A DNA stretch of 43,043 bases, from positions 1-43,043 of the forward strand of contig JAFSLL010000163.1 in the NCBI GenBank assembly GCA_017448455.1, given 5' to 3'. This stretch comes from Oscillospiraceae bacterium (GTDB lineage Bacteria > Bacillota > Clostridia > Oscillospirales > Oscillospiraceae). A program made the translations under genes and the position numbers. The notes below the pieces were generated by a model. That model was not told where the DNA came from. It did no database searches and saw nothing but the letters and a program-made list of their open reading frames with translations. Shown in pieces: positions 13,707 to 31,176 of this stretch. The first letter of the stretch is position 1, and every line of letters starts with the position of its first letter.

Positions 13707-13757
13707 CACCGGCGTCAGGACAGAAGACTTTTGTATAGGATGCAGAGGGATCCGGAT

Positions 13758-14414
13758 ATGTATATGTATTATTTCCTTGCCGGAGACATTCTTTTGGTGT
13801 TTCTTGCTTCTCTGATCGTAAACAAACAGCTCCATCTGCCGTTGTGGAAACTGGTCGTTTTCACGCTGGCCATCGTCCCGGTCGGCTTTTTCTGCGGAAA
13901 GCTGATGCGGCTGGTTGAGGCCGGAACCTGGACCGGCGTTTCCTTCTATGGCGCGGTGCTGTTTGCTCCGGTCCCAATGGTGCTGATTGGCCTGCTGCTT
14001 CGAATCCGGCCGGCCGACATGCTGGATCTGTGCGCGCCGGCGGGCTGTATCGCGCTGGTTTTCATGAAAATCCAGTGCAAAATAACCGGATGCTGCTTTG
14101 GAAGGATCCTCCGGTATGAAGCAAACGGAAGACCGGTTCGGTTTCCCAGCCAGATCGTAGAGATGATCTGCGGAATCGTCCTGCTGGCGGTTATTCTGCA
14201 GATGATTCGATCGGGAAAACAGCGCGGCACGGTGTTTGCGTGGTTTATGCTCTTATATGGAGCATCCCGCTTTGTGCTGAATCTGCTGAGAGATACCTCG
14301 CCCTTCCTGATTGGCCTCTCTGCGGGATGTTTCTGGTCCGTGATCTCTGTCCTGATCGGCGGAAGCGTTCTCCTGTATCAGCGCAGAAAGAAGAAAATGA
14401 AAACTGCCTCATGA
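13758..14414 (+). CDS. Lgt-like (prolipoprotein diacylglyceryl transferase family) membrane protein
   Basis: A 218-residue protein with about seven hydrophobic segments. Its centre, KIQCKITGCCFGRI followed by VRFPSQIVEMI, resembles the Lgt active-site region (GCFxxGCCYG...PSQ in clostridial Lgt relatives). At 218 residues it is shorter than housekeeping Lgt (about 260-300). I start at ATG 13758 because AGAGGGA is 7 nt upstream; in-frame starts at 13731 (TTG) and 13740 (ATG) are possible. It lies 51 nt after the giant LPXTG gene and shares its direction, so the two are probably co-transcribed. It may lipidate a special substrate or modify the surface protein; no substrate is evident. It converges on the next gene across a shared terminator. 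Confidence 0.75.
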   Translation: MYMYYFLAGDILLVFLASLIVNKQLHLPLWKLVVFTLAIVPVGFFCGKLMRLVEAGTWTGVSFYGAVLFAPVPMVLIGLLLRIRPADMLDLCAPAGCIALVFMKIQCKITGCCFGRILRYEANGRPVRFPSQIVEMICGIVLLAVILQMIRSGKQRGTVFAWFMLLYGASRFVLNLLRDTSPFLIGLSAGCFWSVISVLIGGSVLLYQRRKKKMKTAS

Positions 14415-14500: not shown

Positions 14501-15955
14501 TCAGGCCTCGCCCTTCTCGTTTACCGTGAAAGTGACGGGCACTTCTACGGTTTCACCGCTGTCAAGCGTGAAGACGACCGCGGCCTGGTAGGTTCCCGGT
14601 GCCAGTTCTGTAACCGGACGGACAGACCAGGTAGAATTGTTGATCTTGCCTGCAGGAACGGTTTTGCCGGAGGTAGAGCTGAGCGTGAAGGCTTCCGTAT
14701 TCTCTCCGACAAGCTCCGCGGACGTGATCACGGCAGGAAGCGCACTGTCATTTTCAACGATGACCGGACGCGCACTCTGGCGCGCGTAGCCTGCGTCGAC
14801 GGCATCAAACTCCGGCGCGGTGAACAGCAGAAAACTGAGGTTCAGGACTGCGGGCTCACTGGGCAGGACATTGTCGGATACGGCGATGGCGGTCACAACG
14901 GTGCTTTCGGATACGGCAATCGGCGCTTCATAGAGCGTGCCGGATTCTTCCGTGGGAAGGCTGCCGTCCAGCGTGTAATAGATCCGGCTGCCTTCGGGGC
15001 CGCAGATGCTGACCGATTTCTCTTCCGCGTAGGTGCCGCTCTCAAGGTCAAAAGCGGGGCTTTCTGTCTGGATGCTGAGTGTCAGGGTGACATCGGCATC
15101 GACTTCGGAGAGAAGCATGCTTCCATCCTCTTCGTCCCGGGTGATGACTCCGGCGTTTGTCTCCGCCCCCGCGATCCAATATCCGGGAGCAGGGCTGATC
15201 CGGCAGATGCCGTCCTCGCTCACCAGCATCTTCTCGGAGCCGGGCTCAATGTTGGCGCCGTCCAGCTCGATAAAGGGCTCATAGTAATCCGCGAACTTCA
15301 GCTCATAGCAGCCGAAAATCACACTGTCGGCGACATCTCCGCCGAAGCCGAAGATCAGCGCGCCGTTGTTGTACACCGTACCGGCGTTGTTGTAAACGGT
15401 ACCGCCGTTTGCATAAACGATGCCGCCGTTGTTGTAGACCGTGCCCTCGTTGCTGTAAACGGTACCGCCGTTGTTGTAGACCACCGCCAGATTGCTGTAG
15501 ACGACACCGGCGTTGTTGAAGACGGTCATGCCTTCATAGGCGTAAAGCACCTGATCGGCGTTTGCCGTGACATAGTCCTTTTCCGGAGCCTCGGCAGGCT
15601 CAGTCTCACCGTCCGGTTCAATCAGATCGGCGAGCGCGGCAGCGGCTTCCGCTTCTTCCGGCGTGGGGTTTGTCTGGGAAGCAGACGGCGAGGGAAGCGC
15701 ATCCTCAGAGGGCAGCTCCTCACTGTCTTCCTGGAAGAATGCATCTTCTTCCTCTGTTTCTGCAGGAAGCGCATCCTCAGCTGCCTCCGCGTCTTCCGGA
15801 GAAGAGGCGTCTTCCGGTTCCTCGGCAGGATCATCCTGTTCCGTAAAGTCCGCGAGCCGCTCCAGATTCACAGAAGGCGCCGCGAGCGCGGCTGCGGGCA
15901 GGAGACAGACCAACAGAGCGAGAATCATGAACAGGGCGAACAGTTTCTTTTTCAT
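14501..15955 (-). CDS. Secreted protein with GTVYNNG heptapeptide repeats and chitobiase-type domain
   Basis: A 484-residue secreted protein I cannot assign to a named family. Residues 1-26 are a clear Sec signal peptide (MKKKLFALFM ... AAALAA). Residues ~35-127 form a very acidic, Ala/Pro/Ser-rich linker. Residues 143-198 hold eight consecutive seven-residue repeats, consensus G-T-V-Y-N-N-G, plus a degenerate ninth (ALIFGFG); the pattern suggests a narrow beta-solenoid. Residues ~304-380 resemble the chitobiase/beta-hexosaminidase C-terminal domain (IYYTLDGSLPT). The last ~90 residues form an Ig-like beta domain. There is no LPXTG or other anchor, so it is released or held non-covalently. 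AAAGGAGG precedes the ATG and the promoter is at 15995-16024. It is divergent from the lipoprotein-glycan operon. Confidence 0.82.
   Translation of the reverse strand: MKKKLFALFMILALLVCLLPAAALAAPSVNLERLADFTEQDDPAEEPEDASSPEDAEAAEDALPAETEEEDAFFQEDSEELPSEDALPSPSASQTNPTPEEAEAAAALADLIEPDGETEPAEAPEKDYVTANADQVLYAYEGMTVFNNAGVVYSNLAVVYNNGGTVYSNEGTVYNNGGIVYANGGTVYNNAGTVYNNGALIFGFGGDVADSVIFGCYELKFADYYEPFIELDGANIEPGSEKMLVSEDGICRISPAPGYWIAGAETNAGVITRDEEDGSMLLSEVDADVTLTLSIQTESPAFDLESGTYAEEKSVSICGPEGSRIYYTLDGSLPTEESGTLYEAPIAVSESTVVTAIAVSDNVLPSEPAVLNLSFLLFTAPEFDAVDAGYARQSARPVIVENDSALPAVITSAELVGENTEAFTLSSTSGKTVPAGKINNSTWSVRPVTELAPGTYQAAVVFTLDSGETVEVPVTFTVNEKGEA
15362..15529 (-). repeat. Eight tandem 21-bp repeats within the secreted protein gene
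   Basis: Eight units of exactly 21 bp encode the GTVYNNG heptads. The plus-strand unit is approximately GCCGTTGTTGTAGACCGTACC. Units 1, 4 and 6 are nearly identical while units 3 and 7 have diverged more, so copy-number change by slippage or recombination is plausible. Confidence 0.9.
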
Positions 15956-15994: not shown

Positions 15995-16024
15995 ATTATA
16001 CCCCAGCGAAAGGAAGACTGTAAA
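15995..16024 (-). promoter_or_regulatory. Promoter of the repeat protein gene
   Basis: On the minus strand TTTACA (16019-16024) and TATAAT (15995-16000) are spaced 18 nt apart, about 40 nt upstream of the ATG at 15955. Confidence 0.65.
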
Positions 16025-16074: not shown

Positions 16075-16103
16075 TTGAAGCGAGAGGAAAGAAATGGTAT
16101 AAT
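16075..16103 (+). promoter_or_regulatory. Promoter of the eight-gene lipoprotein-glycan operon
   Basis: TTGAAG (16075-16080), 17 nt, then a perfect TATAAT (16098-16103), about 52 nt before the first ATG at 16156. No equally good promoter was found further inside the operon. Confidence 0.72.
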
Positions 16104-16155
16104 AATAAGAACTATACCCTCATCAAGAGAGACTGCAAACAAGAAGGACAAGCCG

Positions 16156-17460
16156 ATGAAAAGAACTGCTTTTCTGTTTCTGTTAATCTGTATCCTGCTG
16201 CTCGCTGCCTGCGGCAGTGCAAACACCGGCGTGATCGAGTCGGAGGAACCCGCTGCGGCGGAAACGTCAGAGCCGATTCCGACACCTACTCCGGTTCCGG
16301 AGCTGACATTCCCGGACGGATCTGTTCATTCCGCAGAGGAAACGACACTGGATCTCACAGCCCTGACGCATGCGGACGTCGCGGAAACCGCTGCCCTGCT
16401 GGCACAGATGCCGGAACTGAAAGAAATTGATCTCGGCAGTGACGGCGCCTGGGTGGAAAAGGAAGAAGAACGCGAAGAGCTCAACGCAATTACTTCCCAG
16501 GTAGAGCGGCCGGAGACGGCAGCGAGAGACCTGACCTGGGATGACCTGCTTCAGCTGCAGGAAGCCGCGCCGGACGCGGAGCTGCTGTACCGCTTTGTTT
16601 TCTACGGCCGTTACCTGACAACCTGGGATGAGGAGATGGACCTGAACCACAGCGTCATGACGGATGAAGGCGCCGCGGTGCGTAAAATTCTCCCGCTGAT
16701 GAAGCGCTGCACACTTCTGGACATGGACTCCTGCGGCGTATCCAACGAGAGCATGGCGGAGATCCGGGACGCCTGGCCCGAGATGAATGTTGTATGGCGC
16801 ATCTGGTTTGCCAACGGATACTTCACAGTTCGGACGGACATTGAAATGCTGTGGTGCGCCAACTTCTATCCGTTCATGACTTCGGAGTTTACGCAGGATC
16901 TGAAGTACTGCACAAAGCTCAAATATCTGGATCTGGGCCACTGCCTGGAGCTGCACGACTGGGACTTCATCCGCTATATGCCCGATCTGGAAGTGCTGAT
17001 CATTACCGCCAGCGGCTGGGAGAACCTGGACATGCTGGAAAACTGCACCAAGCTGGAATTCCTTGAAGTCCCGCCCATGTCCCATACCTATGTGGATCTG
17101 CGTCCGCTGGAGAAGCTGACCAACCTCGAATACCTGAACATCTGCGGGATCGGCCAGTCGGACGGCTGGGAAGTACTGCTGAATATGACCAAGCTCAAAC
17201 GCCTCTGGATCGGACTCTGGACGGCGCAGTCCTTCCCGGAAGGAGCGATCGAGCAGATCTATGCTGCGCTGCCGGATACCGAGATCAACGTGACCGAGCA
17301 GATGGCGGCGGTGGGCAGCTGGCGTGTGAATCCGGACGGATCCGTGCCGGAACGCTATCTCCTGCTGCGGGAGCAGTTTGACTATGACCACTGGCAGGAT
17401 CATGCGCCCTACGCCTATAATGATCCGCTGTATAAGGCTCCATGGGAGCGCCGAAGCTGA
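16156..17460 (+). CDS. Leucine-rich-repeat lipoprotein (first of a tandem pair)
   Basis: A 434-residue exported lipoprotein. The signal peptide ends in the lipobox LLLAACGS, with the lipidated cysteine at residue 20. A short Thr/Pro/Glu-rich linker follows. The rest is a divergent leucine-rich-repeat array with recurring CTKLKYLDLG, MPDLEVLII, CTKLEFLEV, LTNLEYLNI and MTKLKRLWIG units. The C-terminus carries a non-LRR signature, ERYLLLREQFDYD followed by YNDPLY, which is also present in the next protein. AAGGA precedes the ATG; the frame extends upstream to 16075 but that part covers the promoter. No enzyme motif is visible. It probably acts as a binding or scaffolding protein at the outer face of the membrane. 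It is the first gene of the operon that also encodes glycan enzymes. Confidence 0.85.
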   Translation: MKRTAFLFLLICILLLAACGSANTGVIESEEPAAAETSEPIPTPTPVPELTFPDGSVHSAEETTLDLTALTHADVAETAALLAQMPELKEIDLGSDGAWVEKEEEREELNAITSQVERPETAARDLTWDDLLQLQEAAPDAELLYRFVFYGRYLTTWDEEMDLNHSVMTDEGAAVRKILPLMKRCTLLDMDSCGVSNESMAEIRDAWPEMNVVWRIWFANGYFTVRTDIEMLWCANFYPFMTSEFTQDLKYCTKLKYLDLGHCLELHDWDFIRYMPDLEVLIITASGWENLDMLENCTKLEFLEVPPMSHTYVDLRPLEKLTNLEYLNICGIGQSDGWEVLLNMTKLKRLWIGLWTAQSFPEGAIEQIYAALPDTEINVTEQMAAVGSWRVNPDGSVPERYLLLREQFDYDHWQDHAPYAYNDPLYKAPWERRS

Positions 17461-17463
17461 GAA

Positions 17464-18768
17464 ATGAGACCGATGGCAACGACGGAAACGGGCGTCGGCA
17501 CGAAGAGAGGGAAAGCGTTTTATAAGCGGCTGTGGATCGCCGCCGCCGCGACCGCGCTGATGCTGCTCTGCGGCTGCGGAGCCGCGTCCACAGATCCGGA
17601 GCCGGAAACACCCTCCCCGGAACCGGCAGCGGCAGCGGAACCGACCGCAACACCGAAGCCGGTGGAGACGGTATTGTTCCCGGACGGAACAGAGCATCTG
17701 CTGACAGAGAGGCGGGTTGCGCTGCCCTCCCTCTGCCACGCGGATGTCGATCAGGCCGTGGATGCGCTGCAGCGGCTTCCGGATCTCCAGTACGTCTACC
17801 TCGGCAGAGAGGGAACGGAGGAGTCGCCGCGGGATCTCAGCTGGGAGGACATCCGAAAGCTTCAAAACGCCTGCCCGGAGACCGATTTTCAATATACCTT
17901 TACCCTCTTCGGCAAGACCTTTCACACGCTGGATCAGGAAATGAACTTCCACCATGTGACGATGGATGACGAAGGCGCGGCGGTGCGGGAGGTGCTCCCC
18001 TGCATGACGAAGTGCCGGTTTCTGAACATGGACTTCAGCGGCGTGTCTTCCGAGAGCATGGCGAAGATCCGGGATGAGAACCCGCAGATGGAAGTCGTCT
18101 GGCGGATCTGGTTCGGAACCGACTGCAGCGTGCGGACAGACGTGGAGCGTATCCTCGCCTCCAACCTGAATCATAAGCTCTCCGACGCCAACACCCAGGA
18201 TTTGAAGTACTGCACGAAAGTCCGGTTTCTGGATATCGGCCATAACACGCTGCTGCATGATTTCCGTTTTCTGGAATATATGCCGGACCTGGAAGTGGCC
18301 ATCATCTGCATCACCGGACTGGAGGACCTGACGCCGGTCTCCTATTGCACAAAGCTGGAATATCTGGAGATCAACACCCTGTTCTGGGGACAGGATCTGG
18401 ATTTTCAGCCGCTTGCTTCGCTGACAAATCTGGAACACCTCTGCGCTACCCGGCTGGGGCATATCAAACACTGGGAGGCGCTCAAAAACCTGACCAAGCT
18501 GAAGCGGCTCTGGCTCGGGAAATATACCTATCTGCCGGACGGCGCGCTGGAAGAGCTGCAGGCGGCCCTGCCGGATACGGTGATTAACACCACCTATACC
18601 GGCGGAAGCGGCGAAGAATGGCGCCATGACAGCTCCGGCTATACCGAGCGCTACGCGCTGCTGAGAGAACAGTTTGAGTATTCCAATTACGGACGGGTCT
18701 GTTCCTCGTGGTACAATGACCCGGAGTACTTCAAGGAGGGCGAATACCACTATCGCCCGGAAAAATAA
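17464..18768 (+). CDS. Leucine-rich-repeat lipoprotein (second of a tandem pair)
   Basis: A 434-residue paralogue of the preceding protein, 3 nt downstream. It has a longer basic N-terminus before the hydrophobic core (ALMLLCGCGA) with its lipidated cysteine near residue 36-38, then a Pro/Glu/Ala-rich linker. It shares blocks with its neighbour along the whole length: DEGAAVRE, VVWRIWF, QDLKYCTK, MPDLEV, LTKLKRLWLG, ERYALLREQFEY and YNDPEY. It lacks the ~20-residue charged insert seen near residue 100 of the first copy. The start could be ATG 17464 or ATG 17473; neither has a strong ribosome binding site, so coupling to the upstream gene is likely. The pair arose by tandem duplication and has diverged considerably. 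Function unknown. Confidence 0.85.
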   Translation: MRPMATTETGVGTKRGKAFYKRLWIAAAATALMLLCGCGAASTDPEPETPSPEPAAAAEPTATPKPVETVLFPDGTEHLLTERRVALPSLCHADVDQAVDALQRLPDLQYVYLGREGTEESPRDLSWEDIRKLQNACPETDFQYTFTLFGKTFHTLDQEMNFHHVTMDDEGAAVREVLPCMTKCRFLNMDFSGVSSESMAKIRDENPQMEVVWRIWFGTDCSVRTDVERILASNLNHKLSDANTQDLKYCTKVRFLDIGHNTLLHDFRFLEYMPDLEVAIICITGLEDLTPVSYCTKLEYLEINTLFWGQDLDFQPLASLTNLEHLCATRLGHIKHWEALKNLTKLKRLWLGKYTYLPDGALEELQAALPDTVINTTYTGGSGEEWRHDSSGYTERYALLREQFEYSNYGRVCSSWYNDPEYFKEGEYHYRPEK

Positions 18769-18803
18769 CACAGCACCCGAAACATAACAGACAAGAGGAA
18801 CCG

Positions 18804-19787
18804 ATGGAAAACAGAAACGACTGCAGAGTATCCGTGCTCTGCGCAACATATAATCACGAAGAGTATCTGCGGATGACGCTGGACAGTTTTCTGGCGCAGA
18901 AAACGGATTTTCCGTTTGAAGTGCTGGTAAACGATGATGCCTCGACCGATTCCACGGCGGAAATCCTGCGGGAATACGCGGCGAAATACCCGGACATTAT
19001 CCGCCCCTTTTATCAGACGGAGAACCTGTATTCCCGCCGGATTAACCTTTATGATGTCGTGTTTTTCCCAGAAGTCCGCGGAAAGTATATCGCCCTCTGC
19101 GAAGGGGACGATTACTGGTGCGACCCGGAAAAGCTGCAGCGGCAGGTTGACTGGCTGGAAACGCACCCGGACTACTCCGCCTGTGTCCATAATACCATCG
19201 GGCACTTTTCCGATGCGGAGGACCGTGTGCTGTTCGCGCAGGACGGAGACCGCGACATTCCCTTTACCCAGGTGATCCGCGGAATGTCCCACGCCTACCA
19301 TACCAGCTCCATTCTGGCCCGCAGCGAATATATCCTCAACCCGCCGGATTACCGGAATGTGGCCTATGAACAGGGCTATTTTACCGACTACGCCATCGGG
19401 GTCCGGCTCTGCCTGGCGGGCAGGGTGCGGTTTCTGGACCGCTGTATGTCGGTCTATCGGATCGGGAGCAATCCGTCCGCCTGGAGCAGGGGAGTCGGAC
19501 AGGAGTACAGCAAGCTCACACGCTTTGTGCGCGGGGAGATTGCCATGCTGAAGACCCTGCGGCAGCATGACCTGACCGACGAACAGGCGGCGGAAGTGGA
19601 TGAGGTGATCCTCGAGCGGGAATATGAGCTGCTCTATTTAGAGGGAAAAGTGGACCAGATGGTCAGGCCGCCCTATGACCGGATTCACCGCAGCATGGGC
19701 CGCGGACGGATCCTCTCGACACAGCTGAAACGGATGTTCCCCCGTCTGCACCGGCTTTACCGCAGACGCCGCGGATACGAGGACTGA
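18804..19787 (+). CDS. Family 2 glycosyltransferase
   Basis: A 327-residue cytoplasmic GT-A fold glycosyltransferase. The N-terminus VSVLCATYNHEEYLRMTLDS, the nucleotide-binding VNDDASTDST (residues 42-51) and the metal-binding region ALCEGDDYWCDPEK (97-110) are typical of GT2. It transfers a sugar from an activated nucleotide donor to a lipid-linked or growing glycan; donor and acceptor are unknown. The C-terminus is very basic (RLYRRRRGYED), consistent with peripheral membrane association. AGAGGAAC precedes the ATG. It lies 35 nt after the LRR lipoproteins and 6 nt before the flippase gene. Confidence 0.92.
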   Translation: MENRNDCRVSVLCATYNHEEYLRMTLDSFLAQKTDFPFEVLVNDDASTDSTAEILREYAAKYPDIIRPFYQTENLYSRRINLYDVVFFPEVRGKYIALCEGDDYWCDPEKLQRQVDWLETHPDYSACVHNTIGHFSDAEDRVLFAQDGDRDIPFTQVIRGMSHAYHTSSILARSEYILNPPDYRNVAYEQGYFTDYAIGVRLCLAGRVRFLDRCMSVYRIGSNPSAWSRGVGQEYSKLTRFVRGEIAMLKTLRQHDLTDEQAAEVDEVILEREYELLYLEGKVDQMVRPPYDRIHRSMGRGRILSTQLKRMFPRLHRLYRRRRGYED

Positions 19788-19793
19788 AGATCC

Positions 19794-21242
19794 ATGGACA
19801 AGCGAAGCAAAGTTTTCAGCAACCTGATCTGGCGTTTTTTCGAGCGCGGCGGCTCCCAGTTGGTCAGCTTTGCTGTCTCCATCGTGCTGGCCCGGATTCT
19901 GGATCCGGCGACCTACGGAACGGTCAGCAAGGTTCTGGTCATTACCGCGGTCATGCTGGTGTTTGTGGACAGCGGCATGGCAAACGCCCTCATCCAGAAG
20001 AAAGATCCGGATGACCTGGATTTTTCCTCGGTCTTCTATTTTAACATCTGTTTCTGCCTGGTCCTGTATGTGCTGCTGTTTTTCACGGCGCCGTGGATCG
20101 CGGTTCTTTATAAAGACACAGGCCTGACTCCCCTTGTGCGCGTACTGGGCCTGACGCTGATCTTCTCCGGGCTGAAGAACGTACAGCAGGCCTATGTATC
20201 CAAGACCATGCAGTTTCGGCGCTTCTTCTTTGCGACGCTGGGCGGCACGCTGTTTTCGGCGGTGCTGGGCATCACGATGGCCTACCGCGGCTTTGGCGTC
20301 TGGGCACTGGTGGCACAGCAGATCTCCAACGTGGCCGTGAACACCGCCATTCTGTGGTTTACGGTCGGCTGGAAACCGAAACGCATGTTTTCCTGGCAGC
20401 GTCTGACCGGGCTTCTGCAATACGGCTGGAAACTGCTGGTTGCCTCGCTGATCGACCAGGTCTATATCAAGATCTATCCGCTGGTCATCGGGATCCGATA
20501 TACCAGCGAGGACATCGCCTTTTACGAGAAGGGCATGAACTGGCCGAATCTGATCGTGGAAAACATCAACAACTCCATGGACAGCGTCCTGCTGCCGGTG
20601 CTCTCTGCAGAACAGGATCAGAAAGACCGCGTCCGCGAGATGACCCGCCGCGCGATTAAAACAGGCACCTATATCATTATGCCGCTGATGGCGGGTCTTG
20701 CCGCCTGCGCGACGCCGCTTGTCCGCCTGCTGATGACGGAAAAGTGGCTCCCAAGCGTGCCCTACCTGCAGATTTTCTGCATTATCTATGCGTTCTTTCC
20801 TCTGCATACGGCGAACCTCAACGCCATTAAGGCGATGGGCCGCAGCGATATCTTCCTGATTCTGGAGATTGTAAAAAGAGGGCTGGAGCTGGTGATCCTG
20901 CTGATCACCATGCGTTACGGCGTCTTCGCGATGGTAATCGGTCTGCTGCTCTCCGAGCTTGCCTCCCAGGGAATCAATGCCTTCCCGAACCGGAAGCTGC
21001 TGGACTATCCCTATTGGCAGCAGCTGAAGGACATGCTGCCGGCGATTCTGCTGTCGCTTGCCATGGCGGCGGTCGTTTACCCGATCTGCCTGCTCGGCTT
21101 TCCGGACTGGCTGACCCTGCTGATCCAGATTCCGCTCGGCGTGCTGATCTATGTGCTTGGCTCCAAAATTCTGAAGCTGGAGAGTTTTACCTATCTTCTC
21201 TCCGCAGCGAAAACCATGCTGAACAAACGAAAGGCGGGATAA
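19794..21242 (+). CDS. MOP-superfamily polysaccharide flippase (Wzx/PST-like)
   Basis: A 482-residue integral membrane protein with about 12-14 hydrophobic helices. The N-terminus resembles the WzxC/PST branch (LIWRFFERGGSQLVSFAVSI, then LARILDPATYGTVS). Family members move undecaprenyl-linked oligosaccharides across the cytoplasmic membrane. It begins 6 nt after the glycosyltransferase and ends 5 nt before the ATP-grasp gene. No Wzy polymerase or chain-length regulator is in the operon, so the product may be a short oligosaccharide or be finished by enzymes encoded elsewhere. Confidence 0.93.
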   Translation: MDKRSKVFSNLIWRFFERGGSQLVSFAVSIVLARILDPATYGTVSKVLVITAVMLVFVDSGMANALIQKKDPDDLDFSSVFYFNICFCLVLYVLLFFTAPWIAVLYKDTGLTPLVRVLGLTLIFSGLKNVQQAYVSKTMQFRRFFFATLGGTLFSAVLGITMAYRGFGVWALVAQQISNVAVNTAILWFTVGWKPKRMFSWQRLTGLLQYGWKLLVASLIDQVYIKIYPLVIGIRYTSEDIAFYEKGMNWPNLIVENINNSMDSVLLPVLSAEQDQKDRVREMTRRAIKTGTYIIMPLMAGLAACATPLVRLLMTEKWLPSVPYLQIFCIIYAFFPLHTANLNAIKAMGRSDIFLILEIVKRGLELVILLITMRYGVFAMVIGLLLSELASQGINAFPNRKLLDYPYWQQLKDMLPAILLSLAMAAVVYPICLLGFPDWLTLLIQIPLGVLIYVLGSKILKLESFTYLLSAAKTMLNKRKAG

Positions 21243-21247
21243 CCGCA

Positions 21248-22462
21248 ATGAAAAAACTGCTCCTTCTGGGAGGCTCGCGCTATCTGCTCCCCGTGATTCG
21301 GGAGGCGAAGGCGCTGGGCTGCCACACCATCACCTGCGACTATCTGCCGGATAATATCGCGCACCGGTATTCCGACGAGTATCACAATGTGAGCATCATC
21401 GACAGAGACGCTGTTCTGCGGCTGGCAAAAGAGCTGGAGATCGACGGCATCATGTCCTTTGCCTGTGACCCCGGTGTTGTCACGGCGGCTTATGTGGCGG
21501 AGCAGCTCGGACTGCCGAATGTCGGGCCGTATGAGTCGGTTGCCATCCTGCAGGATAAGGGACGGTTCCGCAGCTTTCTCCGGGAGCACGGCTTTCGGGT
21601 ACCCATGTCTTACAGCTTCGCGACCGCGGAGGAAGCCCTTTCCCGGATAGACGAGTTTACCTGGCCGCAGATTGTGAAGCCGGTGGATTCCGCCGGCAGC
21701 AAGGGCGTCAGCCGCGTGGACAGCCCCGCGCAGCTGGAGGACGCGATCCGATTCGCGCTTTCTTTCAGCCACTGCGGACGGTTCATCATGGAGGATTTTA
21801 TCCGGCAGCAGGGCTTCTCTTCCGACACGGACTGCTTTTCTGTGGACGGGGAGCTCCGCTTTGTGTCTTTCAACAACCAGTATTTTGACGCCGAGGCGGA
21901 CAATCCCTATGCCCCGATCGGCTATACCTGGCCTTCCGTGATGCCGGAGCACATCCAGCAGGAGCTTACATCCGAAATCCAGCGCCTGCTCAGCCTGCTG
22001 CGGATGCGGACCTCGGTATATAACATCGAAACGCGCCAGGGCACGGACGGACACGGCTATCTGATGGAAGTCTCCCCGCGCGGCGGCGGAAACCGCCTCA
22101 GCGAGATGCTGGAATACTGCACCGGAACAAAGCTGATCCAAAACGCGGTCAGGGCGGCGGTCGGGCTGCCGGTGGATGACATGCGCCATCCCGGCTACCG
22201 CGGGCACTGGTCCATTGTCATGCTGCACGCCCAGCGTGACGGCATCTTCCGCGAGCTGCAGATCGCCGAAGCGGCCCGCCCCTATGTCGTGGAAGAGGAT
22301 CTCTGGGTTTCTCCCGGGGACCGGGTCGAAGCGATGACCGGCGCCAACAAGGCCATCGGCTCCCTGGTGATGAACTGGCCATCCGATGAGGAGCGGGATG
22401 CCCGCATGGCGGATGTGGAAGCCTGGGTCCGGGTCCTGACAGAGGAGCGGACAGATGCGTAA
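21248..22462 (+). CDS. ATP-grasp family ligase
   Basis: A 404-residue cytoplasmic enzyme. It has a pre-ATP-grasp Rossmann-like start (KKLLLLGGSRYLLPVIREAK), the ATP-binding strand and loop PQIVKPVDSAGSKGVSRV, the hinge RFIMEDFI, and the magnesium-binding end LMEVSPRGGGN. The family joins a carboxylate to an amine or thiol with ATP, through an acyl phosphate. The ATG at 21248, in the usual family position, is used rather than upstream in-frame codons inside the flippase gene. It overlaps the next gene by 8 nt. In an envelope-glycan operon it may couple an amino acid or similar acid to an amino sugar. The substrate is unknown. Confidence 0.9.
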   Translation: MKKLLLLGGSRYLLPVIREAKALGCHTITCDYLPDNIAHRYSDEYHNVSIIDRDAVLRLAKELEIDGIMSFACDPGVVTAAYVAEQLGLPNVGPYESVAILQDKGRFRSFLREHGFRVPMSYSFATAEEALSRIDEFTWPQIVKPVDSAGSKGVSRVDSPAQLEDAIRFALSFSHCGRFIMEDFIRQQGFSSDTDCFSVDGELRFVSFNNQYFDAEADNPYAPIGYTWPSVMPEHIQQELTSEIQRLLSLLRMRTSVYNIETRQGTDGHGYLMEVSPRGGGNRLSEMLEYCTGTKLIQNAVRAAVGLPVDDMRHPGYRGHWSIVMLHAQRDGIFRELQIAEAARPYVVEEDLWVSPGDRVEAMTGANKAIGSLVMNWPSDEERDARMADVEAWVRVLTEERTDA

Positions 22463-23402
22463 GGAGATTGGCGGCTACTTCGAACTGGAGCGCTTTTCCG
22501 GCGTGCTGCCGCATGAAGGGGCGCTGGCCCTCTCAAGCGGGAGAGCCTGTCTTGCCTATCTGATCGAACAGAGACAGATCCGAAAAATGCTGCTGCCGGA
22601 CTTTATCTGTGACGTGGTGGAACAGGTCTGCGAATCGCACCGGGTGGCGCTGCGGCGCTATGCGATCAGAGAGGACCTGCGGCCGCCCGAACTGCAGCCG
22701 GAGGACGGGGAATGGGTCTATCTGGTCAATTATTACGGACAGCTGACCCAGGAGGAACTGCGCGGCTATGCGGCAAAGTATCCCCGTGTGATCATCGACA
22801 ACGCGCAGGCTTTTTTCGCACCGGCGATTCCCGGGGTGGATACGCTCTACACCTGCCGAAAGTTTTTCGGCGTGTCGGACGGCGGGTTTCTGTATACCGA
22901 TGCGCCGGAAAGGGCGCTGGAGAGGGACGAGTCCTGGGCAAGAATGCGTTTTGTGCTCGGCCGCTATGAGCGCCCTGCCGGGGAGTTCTTTGCCGAGGCG
23001 TCTCAGAATAACGATCTCCTCCCGGAAGAGCCAAAGCAGATGTCCGCACTGACGGAGAATCTGCTCCGGGCAGTGGATTATGATGCGGTCCGAAAAAGAC
23101 GGACGGAGAATTATCAGATCCTGAACGAGGTGCTGGGTTCCTTCAACTGCCAGTCCGTACGGCATACGGAAGGCGCCTATGCCTATCCGCTGATGCTGGA
23201 AGAAGGAGAGCGGATCCGGAAGGAGCTGATCGCGCGGAAAATCTTTGTAGCCCAGCTCTGGCCGAATGTCCTGCGGAGCTGCCCGGAGGAGTCTCCTGCC
23301 TGCAGGCTGACCCGGCAGATCCTCCCGCTTCCCTGTGACCAGCGATATGGGCAGGAAGAGATGCAGCTGATCATCGACGCGGTGCGAACCAGCCTTTTGT
23401 AA
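22455..23402 (+). CDS. DegT-like aminotransferase-fold protein (short, divergent)
   Basis: A 315-residue protein with the outline of a type I PLP enzyme of the DegT/DnrJ kind but shorter and divergent. Visible landmarks are ALSSGRACLAYLI (phosphate-binding region, residues 25-37), YLVNYYGQL (89-97), the PLP-facing IIDNAQAFF (113-121, Asp115) and CRKFFGVSDGG (134-144), where Lys136 is the likely Schiff-base lysine. The shared start overlaps the ATP-grasp gene by 8 nt, so the two are translationally coupled and may act in sequence. Whether it transfers an amino group or does another PLP reaction cannot be told. It should work with the full-length DegT protein encoded next. Confidence 0.8.
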   Translation: MRKEIGGYFELERFSGVLPHEGALALSSGRACLAYLIEQRQIRKMLLPDFICDVVEQVCESHRVALRRYAIREDLRPPELQPEDGEWVYLVNYYGQLTQEELRGYAAKYPRVIIDNAQAFFAPAIPGVDTLYTCRKFFGVSDGGFLYTDAPERALERDESWARMRFVLGRYERPAGEFFAEASQNNDLLPEEPKQMSALTENLLRAVDYDAVRKRRTENYQILNEVLGSFNCQSVRHTEGAYAYPLMLEEGERIRKELIARKIFVAQLWPNVLRSCPEESPACRLTRQILPLPCDQRYGQEEMQLIIDAVRTSLL

Positions 23403-23419
23403 AAAGGAGATAGAGAAAA

Positions 23420-24520
23420 ATGAGTGTTTTTGTAACGCGGTCATCCATGCCGCCGTTTGAAGAGTACTGCGAGGAGATCCGTGAGCTCTGGGACAGCCAC
23501 TGGCTGACCAACATGGGCACCAAGCACCGGCAGCTGGAGGCGGAGCTGAAGAAATACCTCAACTGCGGCCCCATGACCCTGTTTACAAACGGGCACCTGG
23601 CCCTGGAGAATGTGATTGAGGCCTTTGACCTGCATGGGGAGATCATCACGACGCCGTTTACCTTTGCGTCCACGACCCACGCCATTGTCCGCAGCGGCTG
23701 CACGCCGGTTTTCTGCGATATCGATCCAAAGACCTATACGCTGGATCCGGAGAAGCTGGAAGCCCTGATCACGGAGCGCACCGTCGCGATCCTGCCGGTA
23801 CACGTCTACGGCAACCTCTGCGATGTGGACCGGATCGGCGACATCGCGAAACGGCACGGCCTGCCGGTGATCTATGACGCCGCGCACGCCTTCGGCGTGT
23901 TCCGCGACGGCGTGAGCGCGGCCTGCTTTGGGGATGCCGCGATGTTCAGTTTTCATGCGACAAAGGTCTTCAACACGATTGAGGGTGGTGCGGTCTGCTG
24001 CCACAGTGAAGAACTGCTGCAGCGGCTCTGCGACCTGAAAAACTTCGGCATCCACAGCGAGGAAGAGGTACCCTATGTCGGCGGGAACGCGAAGATGAAC
24101 GAATTCTGCGCGGCGATGGGCCTGTGCAATCTGCGGCACCTGGAGAGTGAGATTGCCAAACGGCGTCTGGTGGCAGAGCGTTATGACACCCGCCTCGCCG
24201 GAACCGAGGGTATCCGGCTCAACGGAAAGCAGCCGGGCGTACAGTCCAATTACGCCTATTACCCGGTGGTGTTTGACGGGTACCCATATACGCGCGACGA
24301 GATCTTTGCCCGCCTCGCGGCGGAAGGAATCATCCCGCGGAAGTACTTCTACCCCCTGACCAACGCTTTCGGCTGTTATGCCGGGAGACCCGGCTTTGAT
24401 CCGGCGTCGACCCCGGTCGCGCAGCGCGTGGCGGCGTCTGTCCTGACCCTGCCGATGTATGCCGATCTGCCGCTGGAAACGGTCGACCGCATCTGTGAAC
24501 TGATTTTGGAAAAAGACTGA
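23420..24520 (+). CDS. DegT/DnrJ/EryC1/StrS-family sugar aminotransferase
   Basis: A 366-residue PLP enzyme of normal family length. Motifs: LFTNGHLALE (54-63), TPFTFASTTHAI (78-89), the PLP-stacking and binding IYDAAHAFG (151-159, Asp153) and SFHATKVFN with the Schiff-base Lys182. Family members install an amino group on a keto-sugar nucleotide, for example 3- or 4-amino-deoxy sugars. AAAGGAGA precedes the ATG. It lies 17 nt after the short aminotransferase-like gene. No nucleotidyltransferase or dehydratase needed to make the keto-sugar is present here, so the precursor must come from elsewhere. Confidence 0.93.
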   Translation: MSVFVTRSSMPPFEEYCEEIRELWDSHWLTNMGTKHRQLEAELKKYLNCGPMTLFTNGHLALENVIEAFDLHGEIITTPFTFASTTHAIVRSGCTPVFCDIDPKTYTLDPEKLEALITERTVAILPVHVYGNLCDVDRIGDIAKRHGLPVIYDAAHAFGVFRDGVSAACFGDAAMFSFHATKVFNTIEGGAVCCHSEELLQRLCDLKNFGIHSEEEVPYVGGNAKMNEFCAAMGLCNLRHLESEIAKRRLVAERYDTRLAGTEGIRLNGKQPGVQSNYAYYPVVFDGYPYTRDEIFARLAAEGIIPRKYFYPLTNAFGCYAGRPGFDPASTPVAQRVAASVLTLPMYADLPLETVDRICELILEKD

Positions 24521-24544
24521 ATCCCGGAAGGAACGGAAGAACAC

Positions 24545-26152
24545 ATGCGCCCAATCCTGAAAAACAAGCTTTATCTCTATCTGACAGAGTTTTTCGCCGG
24601 CATGGCCGTGATGGCGGTGGAGCTCGGCGCGAGCCGGCTGCTCGCCCCCTACTTTTCCTCCTCGCAGATTGTCTGGACGATTATCATCGGTACGATCATG
24701 ATCGCCATGGCGCTTGGCAACATCTACGGCGGGAAAAGCGCGGACCGGGATCCGAACCCGGACAGACTCTATCGCCGGATTATCATTGCCGCAGTCTGGA
24801 TCGCGCTGATCCCGGTCGTCGGGAAATATATCATTCTCGGCATCTCCGCGGTGATGATTTTCTCTGTCAATTCCAATTACCTGATCTGGGCGGCCTTCGC
24901 GGCCTGTATGCTGATCTTTGTCTTTCCGCTTTTCCTGCTCGGAACCGTCACGCCTTCACTGGCCAAGTATACGATGGAGAACCTGGAGGACAACGCCCGC
25001 ATCGTCGGCACACTCGGTGCCGCCAACACCATCGGCAGCATCATCGGCACCTTTGTTCCGACCTTTATATCCATCCCGGCGGTCGGCACGTCCGTCACCT
25101 TCCTCATCTTTGCGGGAATCCTGCTGGTGCTGGCGCTGCTCTACTTCTTCAGCGCGAAGCAGAAGAGTACGGCGGCCGTCGTGGGAATCGTCCTGTTTCT
25201 TGCAAGCTGCGCGCTCGGACACCGCTCCAACTTTGCGTTCTGGAAGGATAACCTGCTGTATGAGGGCGAATCCATCTACAACTACCTGCAGGTGGAGGAA
25301 ACGGACGACAGCGTGATTCTGTCTACCAATGTCCTTTTCGGCGTGCAGTCGATCCTGCGCAAGGACGCGAACCTGACCGGCATGTACTACGACTATGCCA
25401 TGGCAGCGCCCTTCATGGCCGGGATTGAGGAAAAAACAGCCGAGGGAGAGGACTTTTCTCTGCTGATCCTCGGTATGGGAACCGGCACTTATGGCAGTCA
25501 GTGCGCAAGATACTATCCGGAGATCCAGGTGGAAGGCGTCGAAATTGACGGCAAGATCACCGATCTCGCCCGGGAATACTTTGAAATGCCGGAAGACCTG
25601 CCGGTCAGCACCTACGACGGCCGGGCCTGGCTGCACGCGGTGGACACAAAATACGACGTAATCATGGTCGATGCCTATCAGGACATCACGATTCCGTTTC
25701 AGATGTCGTCCATTGAGTTCTTCACCCTCGTACGGGACCACCTGAAGGACGGCGGCGTCATGGTGGTCAACATGAACATGCGCGGCCAGAAAGAGGGCAA
25801 CATCAACCAGTATCTGGCGGACACCATCGCGCATGTCTTCTCGGAGATCTACACGGTCGATGTTCTTCACAACACCAACCGAGAGCTCTTCGCTTCCAAC
25901 AGTCCGGAGATGCTTTCTGTGATGGAACGAAACCTCGCTCTCTGCCAGGACGCCGAGCTGCAGACCATGCTGCGGCGCGTAACGGCAAGCCTGAGCGCAT
26001 ATGAGGCGGGCCCGTACCTGATGACCGATGACCGCGCGCCGGTGGAGCTGCTGGGAATGCAGGTCATCGATGACCTGATCCGCGACGAGGTCGCGTGGTA
26101 TAAACAGCTTTATGAAGAATACGGCATTCAGGGAATCATCGGCAGCTTTTAA
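24545..26152 (+). CDS. Membrane protein with C-terminal spermidine-synthase-like domain
   Basis: A 535-residue two-part protein. The first ~225 residues hold six or seven transmembrane helices, starting with FFAGMAVMAVELGASRLLAP, which is typical of fused membrane/spermidine-synthase proteins. The C-terminal ~300 residues are a cytosolic Rossmann domain with LILGMGTGTYGSQ (~308-320), the acidic VEGVEIDG and MVDAYQDITIPFQMSS. The family resembles polyamine synthases and methyltransferases, using S-adenosylmethionine or its decarboxylated form. The usual polyamine-pathway neighbours are absent. As the last gene of a glycan operon, 24 nt after the aminotransferase, it may transfer an aminopropyl or similar group at the membrane. 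That is inference. Confidence 0.87.
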   Translation: MRPILKNKLYLYLTEFFAGMAVMAVELGASRLLAPYFSSSQIVWTIIIGTIMIAMALGNIYGGKSADRDPNPDRLYRRIIIAAVWIALIPVVGKYIILGISAVMIFSVNSNYLIWAAFAACMLIFVFPLFLLGTVTPSLAKYTMENLEDNARIVGTLGAANTIGSIIGTFVPTFISIPAVGTSVTFLIFAGILLVLALLYFFSAKQKSTAAVVGIVLFLASCALGHRSNFAFWKDNLLYEGESIYNYLQVEETDDSVILSTNVLFGVQSILRKDANLTGMYYDYAMAAPFMAGIEEKTAEGEDFSLLILGMGTGTYGSQCARYYPEIQVEGVEIDGKITDLAREYFEMPEDLPVSTYDGRAWLHAVDTKYDVIMVDAYQDITIPFQMSSIEFFTLVRDHLKDGGVMVVNMNMRGQKEGNINQYLADTIAHVFSEIYTVDVLHNTNRELFASNSPEMLSVMERNLALCQDAELQTMLRRVTASLSAYEAGPYLMTDDRAPVELLGMQVIDDLIRDEVAWYKQLYEEYGIQGIIGSF

Positions 26153-26171
26153 CAGCCTGTATAATGAAAAA

Positions 26172-26195
26172 TCGCCCGGTCTTTCGACCGGGCGA
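26172..26195. terminator. Terminator closing the lipoprotein-glycan operon (bidirectional)
   Basis: TCGCCCGGT, loop CTTTCG, ACCGGGCGA, then TTTTTT at 26201-26206. The reverse strand ends in TTTT. It lies between two convergent operons. Confidence 0.92.
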
Positions 26196-26211: not shown

Positions 26212-27156
26212 TTATTTTGCTTTTACATAGGGTTTGCCGTTTGCCGCCGGCACACGGGACTTGCCGACGAAGAGGATGAGCACAATTACCGTGACGGCAT
26301 AGGGGATCATGGAGATCAGCTGCATGTTAATGCCGGAAGAACCGCCGAGAACAACTTTCAGTCCGGAGCAGAAGCCAAACAGAAGGCATCCGACCAGGGC
26401 GCCCTGCGGACGAAACTTACCGAAGATAACAGCGGCAATGGCAATAAAGCCCTGACCGACAATGGAGATGGGACGGAACTGTGTGGAGATCGCCATCGTG
26501 ACACAGGCACCGCCCAGGCCGGAGAGGAAACCGGAAATGCACACGCAGAGGAACCTCATCCGAAGGACGTTGATGCCGAGCGTTTCACAGGCCTGAGGAT
26601 GTTCGCCGCAGGCGCGGAGCCGGAGCCCGAAGCGGGTTTTGTAAAAGACAAACCAGACAATCAAAACGGCAATAAAAACAAGATAGGTAGACGCGTAGTT
26701 GGCGAAGATGTTGTCCATAAACCGGCCAAAAACAGTACCGGTATCAAACACGCCGCGGAAAAGACGGGGGATCTTCATGCTGGCTTCCAGCGGAATGGTG
26801 TCCGTGGAGTTAAACATGACCTTGGCAATCATAATGACAATGCCGGGTCCCAGCATATTGATTGCCGTACCGGCGATGGTCTGGTCGGCGCCGAGATTAA
26901 CCGTGGCGATGGCGTGCAGCATGCCGAAGAAGGCGCCGGCGAGACCGCCGCAGAGAAAGCCGATCCAGGGGTTGCCGGTGAAGTAGGCGACAACCGTTCC
27001 CGTAAAAGCGCCGGCCGTCATCATGCCTTCTATACCGATGTTTACGACACCGGAAACTTCCGAGAAGCAGGAACCAAGAGCGGCATACAGAAGGGGTGTG
27101 GTGTAGATCAGCGTGGCATAGAGGATGATACCGAGGTTATTCACAAATTCCGTCAT
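26212..27156 (-). CDS. Nucleoside-type ABC transporter permease (NupQ/YufQ-like)
   Basis: A 314-residue inner-membrane permease of the BPD_transp_2 family with about eight to ten helices. The family signature is visible at VNIGIEGMMTAGAF and in CGEHPQACETLGINVLRMR, the cytoplasmic loop that contacts the ATPase. Together with the second permease, the two-domain ATPase and the BMP lipoprotein it should import nucleosides. It overlaps the upstream permease by 4 nt and is the last gene of its operon. Confidence 0.92.
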   Translation of the reverse strand: MTEFVNNLGIILYATLIYTTPLLYAALGSCFSEVSGVVNIGIEGMMTAGAFTGTVVAYFTGNPWIGFLCGGLAGAFFGMLHAIATVNLGADQTIAGTAINMLGPGIVIMIAKVMFNSTDTIPLEASMKIPRLFRGVFDTGTVFGRFMDNIFANYASTYLVFIAVLIVWFVFYKTRFGLRLRACGEHPQACETLGINVLRMRFLCVCISGFLSGLGGACVTMAISTQFRPISIVGQGFIAIAAVIFGKFRPQGALVGCLLFGFCSGLKVVLGGSSGINMQLISMIPYAVTVIVLILFVGKSRVPAANGKPYVKAK

Positions 27157-28280
27157 TGTTTATCGCCCTCCTTCTTTTCGCTTTCTTTGGCAGGTGGTGC
27201 AGTATCCCGTACCCCTCGTTTCAGATATTTCAGACGCTCAAAAACAATCGAGATTGCGATGAAGAAGACGACGGTTCCCACAATGACATTGACCAGCTGT
27301 GTCGGTGCCCCAACCAGGTTAAGCTTGCTGCCGCCGTAGATCAGCGCACCGTAAAACAGGCCTGCGATGAAAACACCAAAGGGATTGGAACAGCCCATCA
27401 GCGCGACAACGATACCGGCAAAACCGAATCCCTCCTGGCTGGAGAAGACGCTGACACGGCTTCCCATTCCCATCAGCTGAAGGGCACCGCCGAGGCCGGC
27501 CAGCGCGCCGGAGATGGCGAGCGCTGTCAGAATGGAGCCGTTGACATTGATTCCACCGTACTCTGCGGCAAAACGGTTGGAGCCGACCGCTTTCAGCTCA
27601 TAACCGAGCGTGGTCTTGTCGATAATAAACCAGACAAGGAACATCATGGCAATCGCGACAAGAATTCCCCAGTTGGCGGTGGGGCAGAGGCCGAGCTCTT
27701 TGATCAGGTCCTTGGAGAGAAGGGTGCTCGCGTTTGCGGAGATGTTCTTGGTCGCCTCCGCCGTGCCGTCGCTGTGGATGGCGGGGATGCCGGCAATAAA
27801 GTTGGAAAGGTAGAAGGCAATCCAGTTAAACATGATCATGGAGAGCACTTCATTGATTCCCCATTTGGTTTTCAGAAAGCCAACAATAATGCCCCATACA
27901 GCACCGGCGGCCATCGCCGCGAGAAAACACAGAGGGATCAGAACAGGCTTGGGAAGACCGCCGAACAGAATTCCCACAACGGCCGCAGCCATGGATCCGA
28001 CAACAAACTGGCCTTCAGCGCCGATATTAAACACGCCGGTTTTAAAGGAGAAGGCGACGGACAGGCCGACGACAATATAGGGGATGGCATAAACGACTAC
28101 ATAGGAAAAACCTTTTACGCTGGTTACGCTTGTCAGCAGCCGGCCGTAAGCCGCGCCAACCGAGATCCCCATAATTGACAGAAAGACAGCCCCGACAAGA
28201 AAGCCCAGAATGATCGACAGAATCGTATGGAGAAACCGGTTGGTGGATAGAATCTCGATGAAGGATTTTTTCGTCTTCAT
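27153..28280 (-). CDS. Nucleoside-type ABC transporter permease (NupP/YufP-like)
   Basis: A 375-residue permease partner. It has an N-terminal cytoplasmic stretch and helix, FSFKTGVFNIGAEGQF near residue 80, and the ATPase-contact loop YELKAVGSNRFAAEYGGINV. The C-terminus is charged (ESEKKEGDKQ). It overlaps the ATPase gene by 4 nt at one end and the second permease by 4 nt at the other, so all three are translationally coupled. Confidence 0.92.
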   Translation of the reverse strand: MKTKKSFIEILSTNRFLHTILSIILGFLVGAVFLSIMGISVGAAYGRLLTSVTSVKGFSYVVVYAIPYIVVGLSVAFSFKTGVFNIGAEGQFVVGSMAAAVVGILFGGLPKPVLIPLCFLAAMAAGAVWGIIVGFLKTKWGINEVLSMIMFNWIAFYLSNFIAGIPAIHSDGTAEATKNISANASTLLSKDLIKELGLCPTANWGILVAIAMMFLVWFIIDKTTLGYELKAVGSNRFAAEYGGINVNGSILTALAISGALAGLGGALQLMGMGSRVSVFSSQEGFGFAGIVVALMGCSNPFGVFIAGLFYGALIYGGSKLNLVGAPTQLVNVIVGTVVFFIAISIVFERLKYLKRGVRDTAPPAKESEKKEGDKQ

Positions 28281-29815: not shown

Positions 29816-29852
29816 TTAGACCGCCTCCTTATAAAATCTGTTGAATACTTGT

Positions 29853-31037: not shown

Positions 31038-31114
31038 GAGAATACTCCTCGTCTGATCAAAAGATAGTTTATTCTACCATAGACGGCACGCATTTTCTAT
31101 ACTTTCTTTCCACA

Positions 31115-31150
31115 AAAACAAAAAAGCCCTTTGCCTGATGGCAAAGGGCT
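31115..31150 (-). terminator. Terminator or attenuator after the BMP lipoprotein gene
   Basis: On the minus strand AGCCCTTTGCC, loop ATCA, GGCAAAGGGCT is followed by a T-rich run. It lies between the binding-protein gene and the rest of the transporter genes, so it would leave more binding protein than membrane components. Confidence 0.88.
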
Positions 31151-31176
31151 GGAGAATCGGAATATGACCGGCAGAA

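What the first reader, a model, noticed from the sequence alone, without database searches (positions are those of the whole stretch)
16075..26195. Eight-gene operon joining paired LRR lipoproteins to an unusual amino-glycan pathway
Seen: one promoter, gaps of 3-35 nt (one 8-nt overlap) and one strong terminator bind together two LRR lipoproteins, a GT2, a flippase, an ATP-grasp ligase, two aminotransferase-type proteins and a membrane spermidine-synthase-like protein. Known: flippase, GT and DegT genes mark envelope glycans; ATP-grasp enzymes make amides; spermidine-synthase-like enzymes transfer aminopropyl or methyl groups. Inference: the operon makes a lipid-linked sugar carrying an amide- or polyamine-like decoration, and the lipoproteins receive, sense or organise it outside. 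I know of no described system with this gene set.
Basis: partly seen in the sequence, partly recalled or inferred. Interest (0 to 1): 0.72.

Follow-up and report, generated by a model that had tools for sequence, protein, structure and literature searches.

The report
Surface-sugar operon with paired LRR lipoproteins
An uncultured gut bacterium carries a conserved operon that pairs two surface lipoproteins with genes for an unusual amino-sugar coat; the sugar genes recur in many other bacteria but seem unstudied, while the lipoprotein link was found only in one small lineage.

Summary
In detail: eight same-strand genes (16156-26152), gaps 3-35 nt, one 8-nt overlap, a promoter-like site and a terminator-like hairpin. 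The operon is conserved: LRR(-LRR)-GT2-flippase-ATP-grasp-PLP enzyme-DegT recurs in 8 further species of the genus; the spermidine-synthase-like gene ends it in 6 of 9. The parts have different histories. The glycan part is a widespread cassette: relatives of the sixth protein sit in sugar clusters of Ruminococcus, Blautia, Granulicatella and Selenomonas, directly behind an ATP-grasp gene in 53 of 79 loci, often with DegT, flippase, RmlA and RmlB. In the genus, 19 other GT2-flippase loci lack LRRs, and the ATP-grasp/PLP slot is exchanged: ATP-grasp alone, another ATP-grasp, a hexapeptide transferase, or nothing. The LRR family is in 100 of 102 genus genomes; 40 of 40 other LRR stretches show no such glycan genes. 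These two subfamilies are mostly operon-linked: LRR1 12 of 15, LRR2 5 of 6. A divergent secreted protein with VYNNGG-like heptads is conserved beside them. Best reading: an N-acylated 4-amino-6-deoxy-sugar glycan with its own surface lipoproteins. The polyamine idea is weak.

The parts
16075..16103 (+). promoter-like site TTGAAG-17-TATAAT (TG before the -10) of the operon
   Evidence: sequence read
16156..17460 (+). LRR1: leucine-rich-repeat lipoprotein, lipobox LAAC
   Evidence: PF12799 34.7 bits (cut-off 27); lipobox; 12 of 15 known members of its subfamily operon-linked
17464..18768 (+). LRR2: leucine-rich-repeat lipoprotein, lipobox LCGC
   Evidence: PF12799 30 bits (cut-off 27); lipobox; AlphaFold pLDDT 87.7; Foldseek ranks internalin LRR structures first
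18804..19787 (+). GT2 glycosyltransferase
   Evidence: PF00535 70.8 bits; 79-83% identical in the other LRR-type operons
19794..21242 (+). MOP/Wzx-type flippase
   Evidence: PF13440 306.4 bits; best NCBIfam model an O-glycosylation flippase, below its cut-off
21248..22462 (+). ATP-grasp ligase, amino-acid-ligase-like
   Evidence: PF13535 40.3 bits, ATPgrasp_N, LAL_C2 just under cut-off; nearest PDB sequences 4dim and L-amino acid ligase 3vot
22455..23402 (+). PLPx: divergent DegT-fold PLP enzyme without a Pfam model or NCBIfam model of its own; K136 and D115 invariant
23420..24520 (+). DegT sugar aminotransferase, DesI-like (C4 amination inferred)
   Evidence: PF01041 306.6 bits; best NCBIfam TIGR04427 DesI, below cut-off; best PDB 2po3
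24545..26152 (+). fused MFS/spermidine-synthase-like membrane protein
   Evidence: NF037959 209 bits (cut-off 40)
26172..26195 (.). bidirectional terminator-like hairpin
14501..15955 (-). divergent secreted protein: signal peptide (by eye), eight xV(Y/F)xNx(G/A)-type heptads, CHB_HEX_C_1; conserved beside the LRR genes
15995..16024 (-). promoter-like site TTTACA-18-TATAAT (11 of 12) of the divergent gene

Best explanation
A surface-glycan operon with its own pair of surface lipoproteins. Inferred steps: an RmlB-type dehydratase encoded elsewhere in the genome supplies a nucleotide 4-keto-6-deoxyhexose; the DegT enzyme aminates C4; the ATP-grasp ligase joins the carboxylate of an amino (or hydroxy) acid to that amine as an amide; PLPx, a divergent DegT-fold PLP enzyme, makes or further aminates the acyl part; GT2 transfers the finished sugar to a lipid-linked acceptor; the MOP flippase turns it outward. 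LRR1 and LRR2, lipid-anchored outside, are made together with the glycan and most likely bind or organise this particular glycan (or what it is attached to). Shown: gene content, family membership, conserved order, slot swapping, bias of the two LRR subfamilies to the operon. Not shown: any product, any LRR ligand, the transcript.
For: Order kept in 9 species with GT2 79-83% and LRRs about 53-73% identical to the window's. In 79 PLPx neighbourhoods: ATP-grasp directly upstream in 53, DegT anywhere in 61, RmlB-like in 27, RmlA-like in 26. Two RmlB genes over cut-off in the window's genome. The gene between flippase and DegT is exchanged between genus members: ATP-grasp, ATP-grasp of another type, or hexapeptide transferase, as expected of an enzyme that acylates the DegT product. 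DegT is nearest DesI by sequence. LRR1 subfamily 12 of 15 and LRR2 5 of 6 known members operon-linked. The GT2 tree puts the LRR-type operons in one clade (support 0.84). The block from the divergent heptad gene to DegT recurs while the window's prolipoprotein transferase, LPXTG-type protein and transporter genes have no hit in the flanks held (flanks 0.8-6.4 kb upstream and 2.9-8.9 kb downstream, none upstream for G143).
Against: No initiating transferase or polymerase in the operon and only one GT. The wider LRR family is nearly universal in the genus, and 40 of 40 other LRR stretches lack these glycan genes. LRR1-type genes also stand alone: G143:C53 and G163:C70 (genomes with the operon) and G212:C48 (a genome 57% complete in which no GT2 or PLPx match was found). 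None of 19 further GT2-flippase loci fetched has an LRR hit (upstream room under 1 kb in two), so LRRs are not needed for the chassis. G008 has GT2-flippase-ATP-grasp-PLPx-DegT without an LRR; a second GT2-flippase copy in G163, inside the LRR-type clade, has a peptidase-like reading frame (by eye) upstream instead. The DegT tree gives no support value for the LRR-type group, and the flippase tree splits it. DesI cut-off not reached (279.7 of 650 bits). No expression data.
Confidence: 0.47

Rival explanations
1. Shared transcription only: the LRR lipoproteins are ordinary members of a genus-wide surface family that happen to be driven by the same promoter as a glycan cassette, with no physical or functional tie to the glycan.
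For: LRR family in 100 of 102 genus genomes, 359 matches; 40 of 40 other LRR stretches without these glycan genes; three stand-alone LRR1-type genes; LRR-free GT2-flippase loci.
Against: LRR directly in front of GT2 in 9 of 9 LRR-type operons (G157 with a single LRR; G010 split over two contigs); LRR1 and LRR2 subfamilies mostly operon-linked.
Confidence: 0.32
2. The LRR lipoproteins (or the divergent heptad protein) are the acceptors: the operon is a dedicated protein O-glycosylation unit.
For: Best NCBIfam hit of the flippase is an O-glycosylation flippase (284.2 of 720 bits); a single GT suggests a short glycan; candidate carrier proteins lie beside the cassette.
Against: No oligosaccharyltransferase among the eight genes; flippase hit is below cut-off. 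Oligosaccharyltransferases elsewhere in the genome were not searched.
Confidence: 0.12
3. One reading: the spermidine-synthase-like protein adds an aminopropyl (polyamine-like) or methyl group to the glycan.
For: It closes the cassette in 6 of 9 LRR-type operons and in 12 of 19 further GT2 loci, even where the acyl slot is empty (G191).
Against: Not at the end in 3 of 9; 12 of 13 copies fetched elsewhere have no hit to the operon's glycan genes (in one of them, G170, a glycosyltransferase-like reading frame lies about 1 kb away, by eye). Aligned with a solved aminopropyltransferase the DGSDP stretch reads DAYQD, so the usual catalytic Asp (motif recalled) is not in register.
Confidence: 0.08

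Closest known systems
Wzx-dependent surface polysaccharide clusters with dTDP-4-amino-4,6-dideoxyhexose (viosamine/Qui4N type; names recalled)
   Same: DegT DesI-like aminotransferase, GT2, MOP flippase, RmlA/RmlB-like neighbours in relatives
   Different: ATP-grasp plus PLPx instead of a plain acetyltransferase; no polymerase or initiating transferase in the operon; LRR lipoproteins in front
GT2-Wzx-ATP-grasp-PLPx-DegT cassette of Ruminococcus flavefaciens, Blautia, Granulicatella, Selenomonas (no description found in my searches)
   Same: same genes, often same order
   Different: directly after PLPx those loci often have a second ATP-grasp (26 of 79) or a GNAT (13 of 79), and RmlA/RmlB alongside; no LRR hit in the 72 of 80 loci that are not LRR-type operons
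Internalin-type leucine-rich repeat surface proteins
   Same: LRR solenoid; nearest PDB sequences and folds are internalins
   Different: lipobox anchor; global TM-scores only about 0.25-0.3; internalin NCBIfam models far below cut-off
ATP-grasp peptide ligases (Burroughs et al. 2015, PMC4431377; passages read)
   Same: linked peptide ligases of O-antigen and teichuronopeptides, with a second ligase or GNAT next door, are discussed there
   Different: that paper treats the R2K families; this gene set is not in the passages seen

Membership tests
DegT/DnrJ/EryC1/StrS sugar aminotransferase (PF01041), DEGT | profile match over cut-off and PLP lysine | tested here: met
   306.6 bits against 19.8; K182 invariant in 13 of 13
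DegT/DnrJ/EryC1/StrS sugar aminotransferase, PLPx | Pfam profile match | tested here: not met
   0 of 22 members hit any Pfam model; 1 of 22 a weak NCBIfam PseC hit
DegT fold, PLPx | fold and active-site lysine and aspartate | tested here: met
   Foldseek best DesV 2oga E 8.4e-13, TM 0.65, rmsd 6.9 A, so divergent; profile-profile with DEGT 94.1%; K136 and D115 invariant in 22. This is about fold, not reaction
DesI C4-aminotransferase | NCBIfam equivalog cut-off | tested here: not met
   279.7 of 650 bits; substrate therefore only inferred
MOP/Wzx flippase | PF13440 over cut-off | tested here: met
   306.4 bits against 23
L-amino-acid ligase of the ATP-grasp fold | ATP-grasp core plus LAL_C2 domain | tested here: inconclusive
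   core met; LAL_C2 27.6 of 29.4 bits
Wzx/Wzy polysaccharide locus | initiating phosphoglycosyl transferase and polymerase in the locus | tested here: not met
   neither among the eight genes; three Bac_transf genes lie on other contigs; polymerases elsewhere not searched
Spermidine synthase | aminopropyl transfer | not testable with these tools
   NCBIfam MFS_SpdSyn subfamily cut-off met (209 against 40 bits); activity cannot be tested
LRR lipoprotein | LRR profile and lipobox | tested here: met
   lipobox by pattern only

The most novel reading that the evidence does not exclude
A serotype-like locus in a commensal lineage: the acylation slot of an amino sugar changes between species, and in one clade a pair of LRR lipoproteins and a divergent VYNNGG-heptad secreted protein were recruited as receptors or scaffold for that specific decorated sugar, building a self-recognising surface layer.
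Probability: 0.15. Interest if true: 0.65.

Novelty: new variant of a known kind. Interest (0 to 1): 0.45.

Why it matters
The glycan half exposes a widespread envelope cassette with a PLP enzyme family that no Pfam model covered in 22 of 22 members tested and that has about 300 relatives in one species-level genome collection. It offers testable chemistry: exchange of the presumed N-acylating gene beside a sugar aminotransferase. The LRR half is a case where surface LRR lipoproteins can be tied by conserved gene order to one glycan, giving a candidate ligand for a large family of unknown function.

Tried and rejected
Polyamine decoration by the spermidine-synthase-like protein: rejected as main reading. 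That gene as a mere chance neighbour: also not adopted, since it closes 12 of 19 further GT2 loci. The idea that LRR pairs in general mark glycan loci: rejected; 40 of 40 other LRR stretches have no hit to this operon's glycan genes. By eye, from naive ORF lists that are unreliable in GC-rich DNA, their neighbours look mostly unrelated to sugars, though glycosyltransferase-like frames lie near LRRs in G001 (L041) and G006 (L035). PDB and PHROGs sequence searches with PLPx found nothing. Literature: searches (listings seen) showed no paper on this gene set; passages of PMC4431377 were read; most subscription journals are not held.

Limits: the genomes are mostly fragmented assemblies and many contigs end inside loci, so absence on short contigs is weak evidence. 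The genus name is inferred from one record title, Candidatus Limivicinus; other records say Oscillospiraceae, Ruminococcaceae or Clostridiales bacterium. The G010 operon is split over contigs C117 and C51 and its unity is inferred. G143's contig ends inside LRR1. Of the GT2 places listed I fetched 19 beyond the LRR-type operons, chosen among the better matches; G201:C206, G146:C107 and the weaker ones were not fetched for this, except those that also came with PLPx. The LRR tree holds 78 rows, not all 359 matches. Start codons in relatives were picked by script.
Full report
Observation. The first start is corrected to the ATG at 16156; 16075 is the -35 hexamer of the promoter-like site. Families: LRR_4 for both lipoproteins, Glycos_transf_2, Polysacc_synt_3, ATP-grasp_4 with ATPgrasp_N and near-threshold LAL_C2, no Pfam family for the sixth protein, DegT_DnrJ_EryC1, Spermine_synth with the NCBIfam fused MFS/spermidine synthase model. 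Promoter and terminator scans exceed chance only slightly over the region, so conservation is the real test.

Conservation in the genus. The sixth protein (PLPx) was sought in 102 genomes of the genus: 35 have a match at E 0.001 or better, 18 of them strong (E below 1e-55). Around 9 of the 18 (the window and G015, G010, G170, G157, G155, G197, G143, G163) the order is LRR(-LRR)-GT2-flippase-ATP-grasp-PLPx-DegT; G157 has one LRR; the spermidine-synthase-like gene follows in 6 of 9. With script-picked starts, the 8-nt ATP-grasp/PLPx overlap recurs in 6 of the 8 other operons; most gaps are under 60 nt, the larger ones 83 nt (LRR-GT2 in G143), 137 nt (LRR-GT2 in G157) and 193 nt (GT2-flippase in G015). 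The other 9 strong PLPx places have no LRR hit.

Chassis and slot. GT2 relatives at E 1e-40 or better occur in 62 of 102 genus genomes. I fetched 19 further GT2 places among the better matches, and one place with the spermidine-synthase-like gene alone. All 19 have the flippase next to GT2, none has an LRR hit, 12 have the spermidine-synthase-like gene in the same stretch; several contigs end early. Behind the flippase lies the same ATP-grasp without PLPx (four loci; a fifth, G163's second copy, is cut by the contig end), an ATP-grasp of another type with a C-terminal extension (eight loci read, one of them shortened; PF15632 in the one tested), a hexapeptide transferase (one), or nothing (G191). 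DegT is missing in three loci with an otherwise complete row (G189, G172, G191). Exchange of an acyl-transfer type gene beside the aminotransferase is what one expects if that gene acylates the new amine; this is inference from gene order.

Wider distribution of the cassette. A scan of species-representative genomes with the PLPx alignment found 300 relatives among 320 pattern matches; the best 80 were kept. Eight of the 80 are the LRR-type genus loci, and LRR hits occur only in those eight. In the 79 loci where PLPx was clustered (L180 was not), the gene directly upstream is an ATP-grasp in 53; directly downstream an ATP-grasp in 26, DegT in 16, a GNAT in 13; anywhere in the locus DegT 61, flippase 42, GT2 36, RmlB-like 27, RmlA-like 26 (clusters by BLAST, family names by eye except four proteins tested). 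In Ruminococcus flavefaciens XPD3002 the order is GT2-flippase-ATP-grasp-PLPx-ATP-grasp-epimerase-DegT-RmlA-RmlB. In 101 genomes spread over the family PLPx matched in 9, five strongly, the window's own included.

PLPx. 22 members share an invariant lysine (K136) and aspartate (D115). The AlphaFold model is confident (mean pLDDT 88.6). Foldseek ranks DegT sugar aminotransferases first (DesV, E 8.4e-13; TM 0.65 with rmsd 6.9 A, so divergent). Profile-profile comparison with the DegT family of the same operon gives 94.1%, E 1.2e-7, and pairs K136 with its lysine. Pfam sees none of the 22 and NCBIfam one, weakly. Its reaction is open.

DegT and sugar. NCBIfam's best model is DesI but below cut-off; the nearest solved sequence is 2po3. 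The window's genome has two RmlB genes over cut-off and three initiating transferases, all on other contigs. A 4-amino-4,6-dideoxyhexose is likely, not shown.

LRR proteins. The LRR2 family is in 25 of 25 genus genomes first searched and in none of 15 genomes of 15 other families, and in 100 of 102 genus genomes with 359 matches (summed). A tree of 78 rows shows an LRR1 clade with 12 of 13 rows operon-linked and an LRR2 clade with 5 of 6. Six further strong matches were then fetched: two (G163:C70, G212:C48) are nearest to LRR1-clade rows and stand without glycan genes, so LRR1 is 12 of 15. Of the four stand-alone members of the two subfamilies three are in genomes that also have the operon; G212 is 57% complete and shows no PLPx or GT2 match. 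None of 40 LRR stretches outside the LRR-type operons has a hit to the operon's glycan genes or to the heptad protein. Quick trees: GT2 groups the LRR-type operons with one LRR-less copy of G163 inside (support 0.84); DegT groups them without a support value; the flippase tree splits them, so flippases have probably been exchanged. Lipoboxes are visible by pattern in 14 of 17 operon rows; two of the rest are contig-end fragments and one start is unsure. The LRR2 model is a solenoid (pLDDT 87.7), nearest internalin LRRs with low global TM; this says nothing about host interaction.

Divergent partner. In the 8 LRR-type operons with upstream sequence, window included, a divergent gene encodes a relative of the window's 14501-15955 protein; G143's contig ends first. 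Five relatives listed at those loci match only its N-terminal and heptad part. A strict heptad pattern counts 8 in the window and 4 to 8 in G015, G170, G155, G163 and G010; in G197 the heptads are degenerate, and in G157 the pattern picked an unrelated frame, so its heptads are not confirmed that way. The window's prolipoprotein transferase, LPXTG-type protein and transporter genes have no hit in the flanks held. The protein also occurs away from the operon: 65 of 102 genomes have some match, many only to the CHB_HEX_C part, and it lies on the same stretch as some LRR-free cassettes.

Mechanism and verdict. The glycan half most likely builds and exports an N-acylated 4-amino-6-deoxy sugar unit; the LRR pair most likely serves that surface structure. 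The first step is well supported by family and neighbourhood; the second rests on gene order and on the bias of two LRR subfamilies to the operon. The spermidine-synthase-like protein is a frequent but separable companion whose chemistry is unknown. Overall: a new variant of a known kind, of moderate interest.

Noticed in passing
14501-15955 (-): Secreted protein with eight tandem xV(Y/F)xNx(G/A)-type heptads and a CHB_HEX_C_1 domain, divergent to the operon and conserved there in 8 of 8 LRR-type loci with sequence; Pfam reports only the C-terminal domains, not the heptads.
   Followed up: partly
7749-13706 (+) and 13731-14414 (+): A 1985-residue LPXTG-type surface protein with Listeria-Bacteroides repeats, followed by an Lgt-like prolipoprotein diacylglyceryl transferase (PF01790, 72 bits).
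   Followed up: no
26212-32247 (-): Nucleoside-type ABC transporter genes (by eye) with a PnrA-like binding protein (PF02608), convergent with the operon; in G185 and G002 the same transporter lies upstream of the GT2 locus instead.
   Followed up: partly
L060 (G000:C176) and L059 (G000:C47): The window's genome has further ATP-grasp pieces at contig ends, one near an initiating transferase and a DegT gene: possibly a second glycan cluster.
   Followed up: no
L044 and L047: Another LRR pair lies near a large lipoprotein-like frame of about 800 residues in both the window's genome and G015 (by eye); may be a separate LRR system.
   Followed up: no
L186, 10304-11587: ATP-grasp with a C-terminal extension containing DFDDTL (HAD-like by eye), the alternative occupant of the slot.
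   Followed up: partly
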